Assembly (NCBI RefSeq): GCF_005405185.1
Contig: NZ_BJDO01000027.1
Span: forward strand, 1 to 32,744
Source: Secundilactobacillus hailunensis
GTDB lineage: Bacteria > Bacillota > Bacilli > Lactobacillales > Lactobacillaceae
Direction: 5' to 3'
DNA: 32,744 nucleotides
Shown: piece by piece, positions 6,080 through 11,305 of the stretch
Position numbering within the stretch: the first letter of the stretch is position 1
Layout of the letters: the number at the start of each line of letters is the position of its first letter
Notes under the pieces: generated by a model
Databases searched by the model: none
What the model saw: only the letters and a program-made list of their open reading frames with translations
What the model was told of the DNA's origin: nothing
Translations under genes and position numbers: made by a program

Positions 6080-8995
6080 TTAATCTTGCTCAGACTGTTC
6101 TTTATTGTTCATCTTATCGTTAACGTACGGATAGGTCCATTTGACCATCACTGACATGATGATCGGCAAAACGATCACGAGGATCACGAGCCCAATGATC
6201 ACGGTCATCGCAACTTGAATCAAAGTTAAGACATCCGATGGCATTAACGCCGCAAAGGTCCCACTTAAAATAATCGCCGCAGAGATCACAACCGTCCCGA
6301 TCTTAGCGGAGGCATTTAAGATTCGTCGCCGGACATCCGGAATTTTAGCACCATCATCACGATAGCGCATCATCAGGAAAATACTGTAATCCACGCCTAA
6401 AGCAGCAATCATAATAAAGCTGAAGAACGGTGTGTTCCACGTCAATAGCGTTTGGGAAAGCAACGCCTTCGACAACAATTTCGTCATCGTTAGAGCGCTA
6501 ATATAAGCAGTCACCAAAGTGGCAATGATGGTTAATGGCTGGATCAAAGACCGGGTGACCACCATTAAAGCGATCCCAATACCCACCAGCATGATGGCCA
6601 CTGTTCGGATAAAGTCACCGCTGGACAATTTTTGCAGGTCAGCCGTTTGAGACGTTTGACCGCCAATAGCAATGGTACTACTCTTCAAAGCACCGTGTTT
6701 CAGACTCGCTTTTGCATCACTGGAAATCGTTCTCATTCGACTAGCCGACGTGGTGGTACTTGGATCACTATTAAGAATAATGGTAACTTTAGCAATCTTT
6801 CGGTTACTTGACATGAAAGCATCCAGTGATGGTTTGAAGGTCGAACTGCCAAGCACTGATTGTGGAATGTAGAACTCATTACCCACGTAAGAATTTTTCA
6901 GCCCGTTCAAGTAATTGCTAGCAGTGGAAGTCCCCTGACTAATTTTTCCTAGTGCACGGTTAGCGGAGGTCAATCCTTGCTGCAGCGCCTTGGTTTTCGA
7001 CTGCAATTCTGCAACTTGGGCAGCTAACTGTGTCACCCCAGCGTTAACTTGGGTACTGCCACTAGCAACAGATTGCGCACCACTGTTCAGTGCAGCACCC
7101 CTTTGAGCCAGTTGACCAGCCCCACTATTGAGCTGGTTAATGCCGCTGGTAAATGGGGTAACCTGTGCGTTAAGCTGACCCAGACCGTTAGAAAGCTGGG
7201 TCGACCCGGCTGCTAATCGACCGGTACCGTTTTGAATCATAGGCAGACGACTAGTTTGAGCCTGTAATTGCGTCAGCATCTGGGTCAATTGCTGACTGCC
7301 ACTGGCAAGTTGACCAACACTGCTTGATAATCCCGTGGTACTGCCGCTTAACTGACTGGTACCAGCACTTAACTGGCTAACACCAGCAGTATAGGCTGAG
7401 ACCCCCTGATTAAGCTGCTGGGCACCGGCCTGCAACTGACTAGTACCAGCGGTGAGCTGTCCTAACTGGGCAGTATTGCGACTAGTATTCACCGCTGCGA
7501 GTTGCTGATCAGCTGAGTTCAACCCGGCTTGAACCTTGGCTAATCCCTGGTTAGCTTGGTTGAGTCCAGTGACTAACTGCCCTACTTGGTCTTTGAGGTA
7601 AAGCCGTTTGATCTTAGATCCGCCAGGCTGAGTGGCTGAACTTACTTGCTTCACACCGGGCTCAGCCTTTAAATAAGTCGTTAAATTGTCAATCGCTGCT
7701 AAATCCTTTTGATTATTCAACGAGTGGCTGCTTTCAATGTACAGCGTTGAAGGCCCAGACATTCCAGCCGGAAAATGCTGGTGGATCAGATTATAGCCAG
7801 CTTTAGATTCGATGCTGTTGGGTAATTCAGCCGCATTATTAAAATTTAGTTTTTGATGGCTAAACAAGAGTAACGGCGCAATCAGAATCACCATAATCAC
7901 AACGGTAATTGCCGTGTGATTCAGCGCTGAGTGTGATAGAAAATGCCACAACGGATTATTACCATGAGCAGCCAAGTTCTTACTTGGCCAAAACATTTTT
8001 TGTCCCAAGGTTGACATAAAGAACATGTTGAGGGTCAGCAAAACCGCCAGTAACACGATTACCCCAACGGCAACACCAACTGCTGAACGGTAGAACGAAA
8101 AGTGCGCTAGGCCTAAAACTGAGAAGCCAATAAAAACCGTTGAGCCACTAAAGAGAATCGTTCGGCCAGCATGCTTGCGGGCTACTGACGACGCCTCACT
8201 AGCAGCTAGCCCGTTCGCTAATTCTTCCTTGAACCGGTTATACAGCAAAATATTGTAGTCGGTACCGATCCCAAAGAGGACCACCACCATAAAGATTTGG
8301 GTGAAATTAGAAATGGGAAAGTTAAATTTAGCCGCTAAGTTCATCACGATACCCACGGAAACGAGGTAGGCAACCCCCACCGTCAGCAACGAAATAAACG
8401 GGACGACCACTGACTGGAAAACTAAGATCAGTACAATGAAAATAAAAACGGCCGCGATGATCTCAGTCTTCTTTAAGCCGGCCTGAGTCACGGTCGAAAA
8501 GTCATCGTTTAACAGATCACTGCCAGTCACGTAAGTTCGCAGACCCTTGATCTTCAGGTGACTGCGTAACTGTTTAGCCTGGGTAGTCACCTTGGCGTGA
8601 TCAGATAGATTGACCATTGCTAACTGAGTCGTGCCATCCTTAGAAGCCAGCTGCTTCTTAGCCTCAGCGTTATCACTAGCGCTAGTCATATCCAAAATAT
8701 CTAGGTTTGGATCTTGTTTAATATTAGTGATAGCACGGTTGATCTGCCGATTATTTTGGGCATTTAACGTCCCAGTCTTTCTATTAAAGACCACGATCAA
8801 GGACCGGACACCGCGATTATTCTCAGATTTACGATCAATATTCTTCGCAACTTCGCTTTGAACCGATGACGGTAACGTGACTGTCCCGTTCGTCTTAACC
8901 AGCTGTGTCACGTTGGGCATCGTCAAAACGGCAATCAACACTAAGCCAATCCAAACAATCAGGGCTAACCCATGTTTTTTAAAAAAACGTTGCAT
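6080..8995 (-). CDS. MMPL-family (RND superfamily) transporter
   Basis: A 971-residue membrane protein with two MMPL halves, each with one leading helix, an extracytoplasmic domain and about five more helices. The family signature with the paired Asp-Tyr proton-relay residues occurs twice: GTDYNILLYNRF (about 244-255) and GVDYSIFLMMRY (about 867-878). The second extracytoplasmic domain (about 460-680) holds a long run of QL..G-type heptads, as in YhgE/Pip-related and YdfJ-like exporters, probably a coiled rod reaching into the wall. Substrate unknown; lipid, peptide or drug export is typical. SD GAGAGGAAG precedes the ATG. A TetR gene, now split off by an insertion, is its likely regulator. 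Confidence 0.9.
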   Translation of the reverse strand: MQRFFKKHGLALIVWIGLVLIAVLTMPNVTQLVKTNGTVTLPSSVQSEVAKNIDRKSENNRGVRSLIVVFNRKTGTLNAQNNRQINRAITNIKQDPNLDILDMTSASDNAEAKKQLASKDGTTQLAMVNLSDHAKVTTQAKQLRSHLKIKGLRTYVTGSDLLNDDFSTVTQAGLKKTEIIAAVFIFIVLILVFQSVVVPFISLLTVGVAYLVSVGIVMNLAAKFNFPISNFTQIFMVVVLFGIGTDYNILLYNRFKEELANGLAASEASSVARKHAGRTILFSGSTVFIGFSVLGLAHFSFYRSAVGVAVGVIVLLAVLLTLNMFFMSTLGQKMFWPSKNLAAHGNNPLWHFLSHSALNHTAITVVIMVILIAPLLLFSHQKLNFNNAAELPNSIESKAGYNLIHQHFPAGMSGPSTLYIESSHSLNNQKDLAAIDNLTTYLKAEPGVKQVSSATQPGGSKIKRLYLKDQVGQLVTGLNQANQGLAKVQAGLNSADQQLAAVNTSRNTAQLGQLTAGTSQLQAGAQQLNQGVSAYTAGVSQLSAGTSQLSGSTTGLSSSVGQLASGSQQLTQMLTQLQAQTSRLPMIQNGTGRLAAGSTQLSNGLGQLNAQVTPFTSGINQLNSGAGQLAQRGAALNSGAQSVASGSTQVNAGVTQLAAQVAELQSKTKALQQGLTSANRALGKISQGTSTASNYLNGLKNSYVGNEFYIPQSVLGSSTFKPSLDAFMSSNRKIAKVTIILNSDPSTTTSASRMRTISSDAKASLKHGALKSSTIAIGGQTSQTADLQKLSSGDFIRTVAIMLVGIGIALMVVTRSLIQPLTIIATLVTAYISALTMTKLLSKALLSQTLLTWNTPFFSFIMIAALGVDYSIFLMMRYRDDGAKIPDVRRRILNASAKIGTVVISAAIILSGTFAALMPSDVLTLIQVAMTVIIGLVILVIVLPIIMSVMVKWTYPYVNDKMNNKEQSEQD

Positions 8996-9028
8996 TAATC
9001 TCTTCCTCTCTTAGACTAGTGACTATAC

Positions 9029-9044
9029 TTATACACTTGTATAA
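9029..9044. promoter_or_regulatory. candidate TetR operator
   Basis: TTATACACTTGTATAA is a 16-bp palindrome with one mismatched pair. It lies 12-27 bases downstream of the exporter's -10 box and 34 bases before its start codon. TetR-family repressors commonly bind such palindromes in the promoter of a divergent exporter. That the TetR of this window binds it is an inference. Confidence 0.55.
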
Positions 9045-9055
9045 CCTATACCAAT

Positions 9056-9084
9056 ATGATAAGCTCACGTTGAAATGACTGCAA
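9056..9084 (-). promoter_or_regulatory. promoter of the MMPL exporter
   Basis: On the minus strand TTGCAG (plus 9079-9084) and TATCAT (plus 9056-9061) are 17 bases apart. The palindrome at 9029-9044 would overlie the start of the transcript, a good position for repression. Confidence 0.55.
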
Positions 9085-9106
9085 TAAACAAAATTAGACT
9101 TCTGCT

Positions 9107-9142
9107 TATAATTAGACAGATCATGAAAAATGCAAGAAAGGA
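9107..9142 (+). promoter_or_regulatory. stranded native tetR leader: -10 box and SD
   Basis: The plus strand holds TATAAT (9107-9112), no good -35, and an AGAAAGGA SD-like site (9135-9142) with no gene behind it. If the transposon is removed, this SD falls about nine bases before the tetR ATG. I therefore read it as the original tetR leader, cut off from its gene by the insertion. Confidence 0.5.
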
Positions 9143-9150
9143 CCAACTAC

Positions 9151-9330
9151 TAATTATCAACTACTTGGCAATAAATTACCGAGCTTGTAACTCACACCCC
9201 TTACAGGGCAGTAGTGCAGACGTCTGAAAGACTCCTACCAAAGTGGTTACATCATCGGGTGGTTGACAACACCCGTTTAGCAATCAGAATATATCTAATT
9301 GTTATTCTCGATTAGATGTTAATTGTTGAA
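9151..9330 (-). ncRNA. predicted omega RNA (reRNA) scaffold at the tnpB 3' end
   Basis: Downstream of tnpB on the minus strand the sequence is dense in hairpins: CGGGTG…CACCCG (9256-9275), CCACTTTGG, GTCTTTCAGAC, CCCTGTAAGGG, an outer GTAAC…GTTAC closure, and the terminal CTCGGTAA…TTGCCAAG stem. TnpB nucleases use such a right-end transcript, with the bases just outside the element serving as guide. The 5' limit is not defined here; it often begins inside the tnpB coding end. The predicted guide begins near 9150 and reads AGTAGTTGGTCCTTTC. Confidence 0.55.
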
Positions 9331-10510
9331 ATGTGGTTGATTTACCGGTTACCCAGTTAGTTCCTAAAAGTTGGATATTCATAGCTCCAATCCGGTCATC
9401 ATTGCTGGTGTAACCACAATGCTCACAGTGATACTCATGCATAACATGGTCCCGAGCTTGTTTATCAATAAACCCACATTTAGGGCAGCGCTGACTGGTA
9501 TAGTGAGCATCAATCTTAACTACTGTTGAGCCTTGAAGTTCCGCTTTGTAGGTCAAAAATTGCTCAAATTGGTAGAAAGCCCAGCTAACCTGCTCATAGC
9601 GCTTATGTTTAGCAACCTTTTCGGTAGCGAACCGTACATTGGTTAAATCTTCAATTGTAAAGACTGTACCGCTACCATAAGTATCAACGAGTGTCTTAGT
9701 TACTTGATGATTGATGTCACTCATCCAGCGGTTTTCTCGTTGATTAATAGCTTTTAATCGACGTTTTGCCGATTTAGTACCTTTGCTTTGCAATTGTTGA
9801 CGTAATTTTTTGAACTTTCGCCGTTTAGCAATAATCTTTTTACCCGAAACGAATCTAGTTTTGCCCTGTTCATCATAAGCAGTGGATAAGAAACGTAACC
9901 CTCTGTCAATTCCAACTACGTGTTTGAGATTATCTTTGTTAAAATTAGGATTATCTAAGGTACAAGCTACGTGTAAGGAGTAATGTCCACAGGACTTAAC
10001 TAGTTTAGCTGTTCCCAGTTTTCCAGCTTTAAGGTATTTTTCAAAGCCCTTAGCCGTAAAATTCATTTTTTCTCTGGTATCAATCGTATTGATAGAAAGC
10101 TGATTTTTAACAAACGACCAGTCTCTCACAGATACAAGATCACATTGAGGACGATGGAAACTGACAGGGTTTCTCAGCCAAGTTAAATCACGGTTTTGAC
10201 GATACCATTCACCGGTGTTCTTATCTTCAAAATGATAAGGTTTCTGCTTGATTTGAGTATTAACAGTCCGGTATCTAGCTAAAACTGTTTTAAAACTTGA
10301 TTGAGCCATTTGTGCTTTAAGCCCAAAAGTATCTCTTATCAAGTGATACAAGGACTTTTGCAAGTCGCTTTGTTTGGGTTTAAAACCATGTTCAAAATAG
10401 TAGCTAGACACAAGGTTAGATGCCAGCCGGTATTGTTCCATAGTAGCTTCAAGCAGATTAGCTTGGTTACTGTTCGGGTAAAGTCTTAGTTTCAAAGTAA
10501 TCGTTGTCAT
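9302..10510 (-). CDS. tnpB: TnpB (IS605 OrfB) RNA-guided nuclease
   Basis: A 402-residue protein with the OrfB N-terminal helical domain, the RuvC-like nuclease and a zinc finger. Numbered from ATG 10510, the catalytic triad is intact: D202 (VGIDRG), E287 (TIEDL) and D372 (DDRIGAMN). The zinc ligands CPKC and CEHC lie at 342-345 and 362-365. The family cuts DNA next to a short TAM under omega RNA guidance, which helps the transposon persist. I chose the ATG because AAGAAGGTG sits just upstream; a GTG at 10519 overlaps that SD. Full length suggests it is not decayed. No tnpA lies nearby. Confidence 0.93.
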   Translation of the reverse strand: MTTITLKLRLYPNSNQANLLEATMEQYRLASNLVSSYYFEHGFKPKQSDLQKSLYHLIRDTFGLKAQMAQSSFKTVLARYRTVNTQIKQKPYHFEDKNTGEWYRQNRDLTWLRNPVSFHRPQCDLVSVRDWSFVKNQLSINTIDTREKMNFTAKGFEKYLKAGKLGTAKLVKSCGHYSLHVACTLDNPNFNKDNLKHVVGIDRGLRFLSTAYDEQGKTRFVSGKKIIAKRRKFKKLRQQLQSKGTKSAKRRLKAINQRENRWMSDINHQVTKTLVDTYGSGTVFTIEDLTNVRFATEKVAKHKRYEQVSWAFYQFEQFLTYKAELQGSTVVKIDAHYTSQRCPKCGFIDKQARDHVMHEYHCEHCGYTSNDDRIGAMNIQLLGTNWVTGKSTTFQQLTSNRE

Positions 10511-10595
10511 ATAGTTCACCTTCTTTCACTGCAATAAGTATACTATAAATTTAGTGAAGAAAGCTAGACTTACTATAACAATTTAGAAAAGAGGT

Positions 10596-10658
10596 GAGTT
10601 GCTCAAGACGACGATTCCTCTCGGCACTGAAGTACCGAGTTTCCTCGTCTAGCAACTC
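10596..10658. repeat. left-end imperfect palindrome of the IS605-type element
   Basis: Nested inverted repeats: GAGTTGCT (10596-10603) with AGCAACTC (10651-10658), AGACGA (10606-10611) with TCGTCT (10645-10650), and CTCGGCAC (10620-10627) with GTACCGAG (10632-10639). They form one 63-base structure ending two bases before the tetR ATG. In IS200/IS605 elements such hairpins are bound by TnpA as single-stranded DNA. Confidence 0.75.
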
Positions 10659-10660
10659 TT

Positions 10661-11305
10661 ATGAAATATGACCTAGATAAAAAGCCGACTCGTGGCGCAC
10701 AACGGACGTTATTCGCGTTTTCACAGACTATGTTCCACTTACTGGCTCAAAAACCCTTTGAGAAAATCAACGTTAACGAAATCTGTCAATTATGTAATTT
10801 CCCCCGAGCGACCTTTTATAATTATTTTGACGATAAATATGACCTCATCAATTATTGCTGGTACGTGTTAGCCGAAAAGGTACATATCGAAGAAGCTGAC
10901 CAATTGAAACCAAATGAAGTTTTAATTGTTTACTTTGACCGCCTATATGATCTTTTTGAAAATAACAGTCAACTGGTTTTAGGCATTTTACGGCATAACC
11001 AGATTTCGGGTAATTTAGTCAACAGTTTTACAAATTACCTGCGAAATCTCGCCCACAAAATGTTTCTGGAAGTGTTCGGCAACCTGCATTTCGATGTGCC
11101 GGTCGAACTGATGGTCGATCATTGCAGCTCGACCATCTTATTACTCATTGAATGGATCTTTCTTAAAAAACAGCCCACGACCCGTGAACAGGCTCACCAC
11201 TATCTAACGGTTTTATTAGGCGATCTAGAAAATATTGCGGTGCCTAAAGATCAGCAGCTAAACGCTAATCAAACCGCCAAAAATACGACTCATACTGACG
11301 CTTAA
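10661..11305 (+). CDS. TetR/AcrR-family regulator, leader displaced by insertion
   Basis: A 214-residue protein with an N-terminal TetR helix-turn-helix: INVNEICQLCNFPRATFYNYFDDKYDLI (about 36-63). The remaining ligand-binding region has no recognisable signature, and the tail (about 195-214) is polar and probably disordered. The first codon follows the left end of the tnpB element directly, and no SD lies within 20 bases. The frame upstream closes at TGA 10628, so no longer start exists. The gene lies divergent from the MMPL exporter and was probably its repressor. Translation is likely weak now, though the coding sequence is intact. Confidence 0.85.
   Translation: MKYDLDKKPTRGAQRTLFAFSQTMFHLLAQKPFEKINVNEICQLCNFPRATFYNYFDDKYDLINYCWYVLAEKVHIEEADQLKPNEVLIVYFDRLYDLFENNSQLVLGILRHNQISGNLVNSFTNYLRNLAHKMFLEVFGNLHFDVPVELMVDHCSSTILLLIEWIFLKKQPTTREQAHHYLTVLLGDLENIAVPKDQQLNANQTAKNTTHTDA

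What the first reader, a model, noticed from the sequence alone, without database searches (positions are those of the whole stretch)
9107..10680. A tnpB element sits exactly at the tetR start codon and splits it from its promoter and SD
The tetR ATG at 10661 follows the element's left end directly and has no SD. On the minus strand the bases beyond the left end are TTCAT, a usual IS605 target; on plus they are ATGAA, the tetR start itself. At the other end, 1.5 kb away, stands an orphan TATAAT and AGAAAGGA. Joining 9150 to 10661 puts that SD about nine bases before ATG. The insertion may therefore have switched off a repressor and left the MMPL exporter constitutive, which could be a selectable change.
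Basis: partly seen in the sequence, partly recalled or inferred. Interest (0 to 1): 0.75.

Follow-up and report, generated by a model that had tools for sequence, protein, structure and literature searches.

The report
Jumping gene carrying spare translation start
A small jumping gene has landed exactly in front of the start codon of a regulator gene, as some of its relatives have done at other genes, and its own end carries a ribosome-binding sequence and a hairpin that may let the interrupted gene still be translated.

Summary
The insertion is real. A 1505-bp tnpB-only IS200/IS605 element (9156-10660) separates the old tetR leader from the tetR ATG (10661). Six relatives lack it and keep a leader with a Shine-Dalgarno (SD)-like sequence joined to tetR.

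"TetR switched off" is not established. The element's left end brings an SD-like tract, a 59-nt hairpin, TCTT and then the ATG. Closing the hairpin leaves 3-7 nt between tract and ATG, the kind of arrangement described for T4 genes 38 and 25.

It recurs. Elements whose target motif (C/T)TCAT puts an ATG against the left end form two TnpB groups. At 8 of 16 such sites the ATG starts a predicted gene; relatives' empty sites confirm five. A strong tract stands at 14 of 15 measured ATG-type sites and 0 of 47 ATA-type relatives. Starts exceed the 20% expected of non-disruptive sites (p = 0.008; 0.02 without the window).

Best reading: a portable split ribosome-binding site that can keep the hit gene translated. 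Expression is untested and the transcription source unknown; exporter de-repression remains a live rival.

The parts
9156..10660 (-). tnpB-only IS200/IS605 element, 1505 bp; no tnpA inside
   Evidence: Right end TTGAY| and left end |AAGA by comparison with copies and empty sites. One copy in its genome.
9302..10510 (-). tnpB, 402 aa, RNA-guided nuclease family; RuvC D, E, D columns present in the alignment (which columns are catalytic is partly recalled)
   Evidence: Pfam OrfB_IS605 and Cas12f1-like_TNB; NCBIfam guided_TnpB 206 bits, cut-off 100; PDB alignments to two chains shown.
9156..9301 (-). right end: predicted omega-RNA scaffold and 3' palindrome (seen by eye); RNA not demonstrated
   Evidence: Similar right ends 3' to tnpB in L073, L074, L077, L078, L081, L082; no Rfam match at gathering score.
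9143..9155 (-). first bases of the predicted guide (the tetR leader read on the minus strand); behind TTCAT they match the empty allele
   Evidence: Inference from the boundary and from ISDra2 (PMC8612924, passages).
10587..10597 (+). SD-like tract AAAAGAGGTGA at the 5' foot of the left-end hairpin
   Evidence: Duplex with the anti-SD (recalled 16S tail) -15.0 kcal/mol; best of 16 window genes tested -15.4.
10598..10656 (+). left-end hairpin, foot GTTGCT...AGCAAC
   Evidence: Fold of 10575-10700 -34 kcal/mol, z -2.64; model R1.
10657..10660 (+). TCTT, element tip between hairpin foot and ATG
10661..10665 (.). ATGAA on plus = TTCAT target motif on minus; also the tetR start codon
   Evidence: Phage copies have ATGAG (CTCAT) at the same place.
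10661..11305 (+). tetR, 214 aa, intact
   Evidence: Pfam TetR_N.
9135..9142 (+). old tetR SD, AGAAAGGA, now stranded
   Evidence: Alignment with L003-L008.
9055..9062 (+). conserved TATGATAA, more likely -10 region of the old tetR promoter
   Evidence: ATGATAA shared in the alignment; function inferred.
6080..8995 (-). mmpL exporter gene divergent from tetR; its start side is unchanged by the insertion
   Evidence: Pfam MMPL 280 bits.

Best explanation
The element belongs to a group of tnpB-only IS200/IS605 elements whose target motif, (C/T)TCAT, is the reverse complement of ATGA(A/G). Each insertion therefore places an ATG directly against the left end, and at about half of the sites seen that ATG is a predicted host start codon. 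The insertion removes the host promoter and SD. The left end replaces the SD: a purine tract, then a hairpin, then about four bases, then the ATG. When the hairpin is closed the tract lies about 3-11 nt from the ATG, comparable to T4 genes 38 and 25. The hit gene can thus stay translated at some level if a transcript crosses the left end. In the window, TetR is probably still made, at an altered level. TnpA would come in trans from resident IS605 copies, and TnpB with its guide would cut empty alleles and so retain the element. Shown: position, boundaries, empty sites, recurrence, and the tract/ATG association. Inferred: translation through the hairpin, TetR level, trans mobilisation, cutting.
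For: Five insertion sites with an empty counterpart in relatives lie exactly before an ATG: tetR, DUF4430 and VOC, NDT and RlmA (NDT exact over 20 nt of left flank, RlmA flank similar but not identical). Three more (GtrA, TauE-like, secreted protein; names by eye from the sequence) rest on an open frame starting at the junction. So 8 of 16 ATG-type sites, against 105 of 514 non-disruptive motif sites in a 400-kb sample: p = 0.008; 7 of 15 without the window, p = 0.02; 6 of 10 among sites collected by the hairpin-only model, p = 0.007.

The tract: anti-SD energy -6.5 to -15.5 in 15 measured ATG-type sites, 14 of 15 at or below -8; 0 of 47 ATA-type sites reach -8. The hairpin model contained neither tract nor motif. 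ATG-type TnpBs fall in two groups needing two label changes on the tree. Hairpin-closed spacing: 3-7 nt (window), 4-6 (second lineage), 9-11 (VOC). T4 precedent: 22 to 5 nt and 27 to 11 nt (PMC3014915, passages). Hit genes remain open; dN/dS of filled versus empty genes at VOC, RlmA and NDT 0.03-0.08 where computable.
Against: No expression data. In predicted folds of ten sites the tract is only 40-63% unpaired, because it can pair with TCTT or with coding bases; the L076 minimum-energy fold is not the hairpin, and the foot forms with probability about 0.65 in L076 and L068. In the window the fold extends the stem, so the closed spacing is nearer 3 than 7 nt, which is short. My spacing script found no foot partner at 5 of 15 sites. 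No outward promoter at a fixed place: 2 of 15 ATG-type and 16 of 47 ATA-type sites have a 5-of-6 -10, below shuffles. That scan left out the last 12 bases; TATAAT lies there in L178, L179 and L193, too close to the tract to start an mRNA that holds it (inference).

The association rests on two lineages, so rows are not independent; one origin is not excluded (10% of bootstrap trees). Seven of the 16 sites (L081, L082, L220, L223, L224 among them) were found or re-found with queries that contained the tract; L220, L223, L224, L081 and L082 by these alone. In the second lineage the whole left end looks conserved, not the tract alone. L197, with a strong tract (-12.0), has no ATG. L066, an ATG-type remnant, has no tract. 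With only the five verified starts, 5 of 16 is not above 20% (p = 0.21). At DUF4430 a 12-nt duplication made a second ATG, which PGAP calls the start. dN/dS cannot tell when on the branch selection acted.
Confidence: 0.45

Rival explanations
1. One reading: the insertion silences tetR, and the divergent MMPL exporter, normally repressed by TetR, becomes constitutive.
For: The old promoter-like block and SD are 1.5 kb away. No convincing promoter in the left end. Mutation of a TetR-family repressor raising an RND pump is a described pattern, and FarR/FarE in S. aureus is a near case (PMC10019231, passages).
Against: The left end carries a strong SD-like tract at a possible folded distance. tetR is intact without clear excess change. 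That this TetR represses this exporter is inferred from gene order only.
Confidence: 0.3
2. The SD-like tract is a DNA feature of the left end (TnpA binding, or extra pairing with the tip TCTT), inherited by descent; insertions at start codons follow simply from the motif and from selection against gene disruption.
For: About 20% of non-disruptive motif sites are starts anyway. Purine tracts can pair with TCTT in the folds. Only two lineages.
Against: A plain complement of TCTT (AAGA) is absent from several tracts (GAAAGGAAGTGA in L062/L063/L083 and L068; GAAAAAAGGTGA in L081/L082). ATA-type elements with homologous hairpins lack a strong tract. Observed starts exceed 20%.
Confidence: 0.35
3. 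The element acts on the exporter instead: tnpB is read towards mmpL, so read-through past the right end raises mmpL whatever happens to tetR.
For: tnpB and mmpL lie on the same strand; the scan found no terminator-like site on the minus strand of 8990-10720.
Against: No transcript data; the 3' end of the omega-RNA and its processing are unknown here.
Confidence: 0.15

Closest known systems
tnpB-only IS200/IS605 elements (IS1341 type, name recalled; ISDra2 and IS608 as models)
   Same: TnpB of the guided family, end hairpins, insertion 3' of a short motif without target duplication (PMC5934647 and PMC8612924, passages).
   Different: Motif (C/T)TCAT, so an ATG abuts the left end, plus an SD-like tract beside the left-end hairpin. 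I saw no report of this in paper searches (listings only) or in the passages of PMC7290912.
T4 gene 38 and gene 25 split ribosome-binding sites (PMC3014915, passages)
   Same: SD and AUG held apart by a hairpin that brings them to a usable distance.
   Different: Here it is carried by a mobile element, the hairpin is longer (about 59 nt), and use by ribosomes is untested.
Lactobacillus phage iLp1308 and MLC-A elements (KR905070, MT956952)
   Same: 82-83% identical over 1.5 kb, TnpB 87%, same ends, tract and motif.
   Different: Not at annotated gene starts; in iLp1308 an 89-codon frame opens at the ATG, antisense to an annotated gene.
FarR/FarE of S. aureus (PMC10019231, passages)
   Same: TetR-family regulator divergent from an RND-type exporter.
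   Different: There regulator variants change expression; here the regulator's leader is replaced.

Membership tests
IS200/IS605 tnpB-only element | TnpB with OrfB/TNB domains | tested here: met
IS200/IS605 tnpB-only element | RuvC catalytic D/E/D | tested here: met
   GID, ED and D columns align with two PDB TnpB-type chains; catalytic columns partly recalled.
IS200/IS605 tnpB-only element | Inserts 3' of a fixed short motif, no target duplication | tested here: met
   Empty sites, (NDT exact); phage flanks.
IS200/IS605 tnpB-only element | Subterminal hairpins at both ends | tested here: met
   Left end folded and modelled; right-end palindrome by eye only.
IS200/IS605 tnpB-only element | Y1 transposase supplied in cis or in trans | tested here: inconclusive
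   None in the element. The genome has 7 Y1 matches at six places, one with an open 154-aa frame (C42); left-end hairpins lie beside five of the six. Use in trans untested.
IS200/IS605 tnpB-only element | omega-RNA with guide from the flank | not testable with these tools
   Similar right ends only; needs RNA-seq.
T4-type split ribosome-binding site | SD, hairpin, AUG with usable collapsed spacing | tested here: inconclusive
   3-7 nt in the window, 4-6 in five second-lineage sites, 9-11 at VOC; no foot partner found by the script at 5 of 15 sites.
T4-type split ribosome-binding site | SD accessible with hairpin formed | tested here: inconclusive
   Mean unpaired probability 0.40-0.63 over ten sites.
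T4-type split ribosome-binding site | Stem mutations lower translation | not testable with these tools
   Needs reporters.
TetR repressor of a divergent RND/MMPL exporter | Divergent conserved pair | tested here: met
   mmpL start opposite tetR in the window and L003-L006.
TetR repressor of a divergent RND/MMPL exporter | Regulator binds and represses the exporter promoter | not testable with these tools
   Only repeated TTAGACA-like motifs seen.

The most novel reading that the evidence does not exclude
A lineage of IS605-type elements targets the reverse complement of ATGA(A/G) and has evolved a portable, hairpin-bridged ribosome-binding site at its left end. It can insert exactly at start codons while keeping the host gene translated, a cost-reducing strategy that also puts that gene's translation under the element's own leader.
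Probability: 0.33. Interest if true: 0.82.

Novelty: new variant of a known kind. Interest (0 to 1): 0.6.

Why it matters
If true, a mobile element solves the problem of landing on start codons by bringing its own translation start, and split SD-hairpin-AUG sites become a recurring, mobile form of regulation rather than a phage T4 curiosity. It would also warn against calling genes 'silenced' when an IS sits at the ATG. The claim can be tested with a few reporter fusions.

Tried and rejected
Outward promoter in the left end as a general feature: no support, although one TTCACC-18-TATACT match lies at 10515-10544 in the window (6 promoter-like sites found in 8990-10720, 4.3 expected by chance). 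Tip-motif covariation between the left-end tip and the target motif: looked at by eye, not clean (L162 and many ATA-type sites do not fit), so not claimed. tetR decay as a sign of silencing: none found, but 4 versus 2 changes has no power. TnpB relatives in genome contigs gave only three loci; IMG/VR gave three contigs, with the lengths of iLp1308, LBR48 and contig G268:C6. Second-lineage left end in plasmids and phages: no match. Start-codon enrichment from the first lineage alone was not significant (3 of 7, p = 0.18).

Rows dropped. Of 129 matches listed (my count of the list), 68 were examined, chosen mainly by score and full length; 61 weaker or partial ones were not fetched for this count (L066, one of them, was read earlier). 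With four phage/plasmid loci and three there were 75 rows. Three were duplicates of one insertion (L062, L083, L076). Nine had no recognisable ATGAR/ATAAA/ATAG flank (L160, L170, L197, L203, L209, L210, L211, L213, L214). L207 was set aside because its flank reads ATAAATG. That left 15 ATG-type and 47 ATA-type. L066 counts among the 16 sites but has no measurable tract. The -8 threshold was chosen after seeing the values. The script's own tnpA label was unreliable and is not used. Gene calls for the background used a simple ORF caller.

Full report
What is there. The window is from a member of a Lactobacillaceae-like genome set (G000, 154 contigs; the organism's name was not given, and the family is judged from its relatives). 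On the minus strand lies a tnpB gene of 402 codons (9302-10510) with OrfB_IS605 and Cas12f1-like TNB domains, the NCBIfam guided-TnpB model at 206 bits against a cut-off of 100, and the RuvC D, E and D columns in the PDB alignments. There is no tnpA inside the element and only this one copy in the genome. The genome has seven matches to the Y1 transposase model at six places, some of them broken, one with an open 154-aa frame; left-end hairpins matching the same model lie beside five of the six. A transposase in trans is therefore possible but untested.

Boundaries. Relatives of the element end TTGAY on the tnpB strand, followed by unrelated flank (L073, L074, L075, L077, L078; phage copies L081 and L082). 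The NDT pair is decisive: the empty gene in G183 and the filled gene in G352 share 20 identical left-flank bases, then GTCAAC...CTCTT, then the same ATGAACAAG. By that rule the window element is 9156-10660, and the empty site is 9155|10661. The reconstructed spacing from AAGGA to ATG is 13 nt, longer than the 6 nt of the nearest relative L003. Without a same-species empty allele I cannot tell whether the ancestor really had that spacing.

The tetR start and the old leader. Six relatives (L003-L008) carry the mmpL-tetR region without the element, with an SD-like leader running straight into tetR. TetR begins MKYDL in all six sequences aligned (window, L003-L007); L008 begins with GTG. The tetR ORF is intact: dN/dS against L003 is 0.037 over 196 codons, against 0.052 for the first 447 codons of mmpL. 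There are four changes on the window's side and two on the relative's, too few to judge decay.

The left end as a leader. Read towards tetR, the element ends with AAAAGAGGTGA (10587-10597), then the hairpin with foot GTTGCT...AGCAAC (10598-10656), TCTT and ATG. The tract pairs with the 16S tail (tail recalled) at -15.0 kcal/mol, close to the best of 16 window genes (-15.4). The region 10575-10700 folds at -34 kcal/mol, z -2.64. From the end of GAGG to the ATG are 66 nt; with the hairpin foot closed 7 nt remain, and with the stem extended by Watson-Crick pairs, as the fold predicts, 3 nt. Five second-lineage sites give 4-6 nt, VOC 9-11; at 5 of 15 sites the script found no foot partner. A review describes T4 genes 38 and 25 with hairpins that cut the SD-AUG distance from 22 to 5 and from 27 to 11 nt, and says that destabilising them lowers initiation (PMC3014915, passages seen). 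In my folds the tract is only partly free, 0.40-0.63 unpaired over ten sites. For L076 and L068 the hairpin foot forms with probability near 0.65, and the L076 minimum-energy fold is a different one. That is a real weakness.

Recurrence. A 60-nt covariance model of the hairpin alone matched 58 of 397 genomes of the family, 129 listed places. I examined 68 of the 129, plus phage and plasmid copies, plus nine second-lineage sites found in 36 genomes of one genus, six of which were already among the 68. Sixteen distinct sites have ATGA(A/G) abutting the left end. At eight the ATG starts a predicted gene in sense: tetR (window), DUF4430 (L. kefiranofaciens plasmid NZ_CP140263.1 and genome G292, counted once), and genes that by eye are VOC (G132), GtrA (G360), NDT (G352), RlmA (G289), TauE-like (G332) and a secreted protein (G301). 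Empty relatives confirm tetR, DUF4430, VOC, NDT and RlmA; at RlmA the left flanks are similar, not identical. The other three rest on the ORF alone. The remaining eight (L066, L081, L082, the LBR48/L062/L063 insertion, L162, L177, L178, L224) are not at evident gene starts. Two of these have open frames of 89 (L081, antisense to an annotated phage gene) and 46 codons (L224) at the ATG.

Is that more than the motif gives? In 400 kb of G360, 105 of 514 ATGA(A/G) sites that do not interrupt a gene are predicted starts (20%), and 4% of all 2574 sites. Eight of 16 exceeds 20% at p = 0.008, one-sided, with heuristic gene calls. The window was chosen because it sits at a start; without it, 7 of 15, p = 0.02. 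Sites collected by the hairpin-only model: 6 of 10, p = 0.007 (5 of 9 without the window, p = 0.02). Counting only the five verified starts, 5 of 16 is not above 20% (p = 0.21). The first lineage alone, 3 of 7, was not significant (p = 0.18). Start-codon insertion is thus largely explained by the motif, with a modest excess.

The tract follows the ATG. In 15 measured ATG-type sites the tract energy runs from -6.5 to -15.5; in 47 ATA-type sites from +0.8 to -7.3. At a threshold of -8, chosen afterwards, it is 14 of 15 against 0 of 47. Ten of the 15 were collected by the hairpin-only model; L081, L082, L220, L223 and L224 were found only with queries that contained the tract. The rows are related, so the p-value (5e-13) overstates the case. 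The TnpB tree of 31 rows puts ten ATG-type rows in two well-separated groups (two changes; one origin is not excluded, 10% of bootstrap trees, and the tree warns of long branches). Exceptions are L197, an unclassified site with a strong tract and no ATG, and L066, a fused remnant without a tract.

Genes after insertion. VOC, RlmA and NDT genes with the insertion stay open, with dN/dS of 0.03-0.08 against empty relatives where computable. This fits continued use but cannot date it. At VOC and RlmA no long tnpB ORF remains next to the left end. At DUF4430 a 12-nt tandem duplication has added a second ATG, which the plasmid's annotation uses. That may mean that the ATG beside the hairpin was not ideal.

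Mechanism. The best-supported view is a portable split ribosome-binding site. Insertion follows the known single-strand route 3' of a short motif (PMC5934647 and PMC8612924, passages). TnpB with a guide copied from the flank would cut empty alleles, as proposed for ISDra2. The missing step is transcription. No outward promoter stands at a fixed place (which left out the last 12 bases before the hairpin; TATAAT occurs there in three second-lineage sites, but too near the tract to be useful). So tetR RNA would have to come from the old promoter through 1.5 kb of antisense tnpB, or from the weak match at 10515-10544. A TetR-family regulator opposite an RND pump is a familiar pair (FarR/FarE, PMC10019231, passages), but repression of this exporter by this TetR is inferred from gene order alone.

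Literature. Searches of the held library (listings only) and passages of one IS200/IS605 survey (PMC7290912) showed nothing on start-codon insertion with a left-end SD in this family. That library lacks most subscription journals.

Noticed in passing
L076:1890-1917 and L061:5265-5292: After insertion at the DUF4430 start, TATGAAAAAAGC is tandemly duplicated, making a second ATG 12 nt downstream; PGAP uses the second in the plasmid record.
   Followed up: partly
L066:3066-3124: A remnant of roughly 50 nt that looks like the right-end hairpin fused to the left-end tip, perhaps by recombination between the two similar end hairpins.
   Followed up: no
L062, L063, L083 (Lactobacillus phage LBR48): The same solo left-end hairpin with a strong SD-like tract in a phage and two genomes; between the lysin and integrase genes in LBR48.
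   Followed up: partly
window 9020-9120: TTAGACA-like motifs in the mmpL-tetR intergenic region, conserved in relatives; possible TetR operators, left on the mmpL side of the insertion.
   Followed up: partly
G000 C14, C42, C3, C22, C5 (L165, L168, L172, L175, L201): Resident IS605 copies with a homologous left-end hairpin but an ATA-type motif, beside Y1 transposase matches, some broken.
   Followed up: partly
L197 (G138:C1:126060-126119): Left end with a strong SD-like tract (-12.0) but no ATG at the tip; does not fit the association.
   Followed up: no
window 6080-8995: The MMPL exporter holds a stretch matching the LxxG heptad-repeat model TIGR03057.
   Followed up: no
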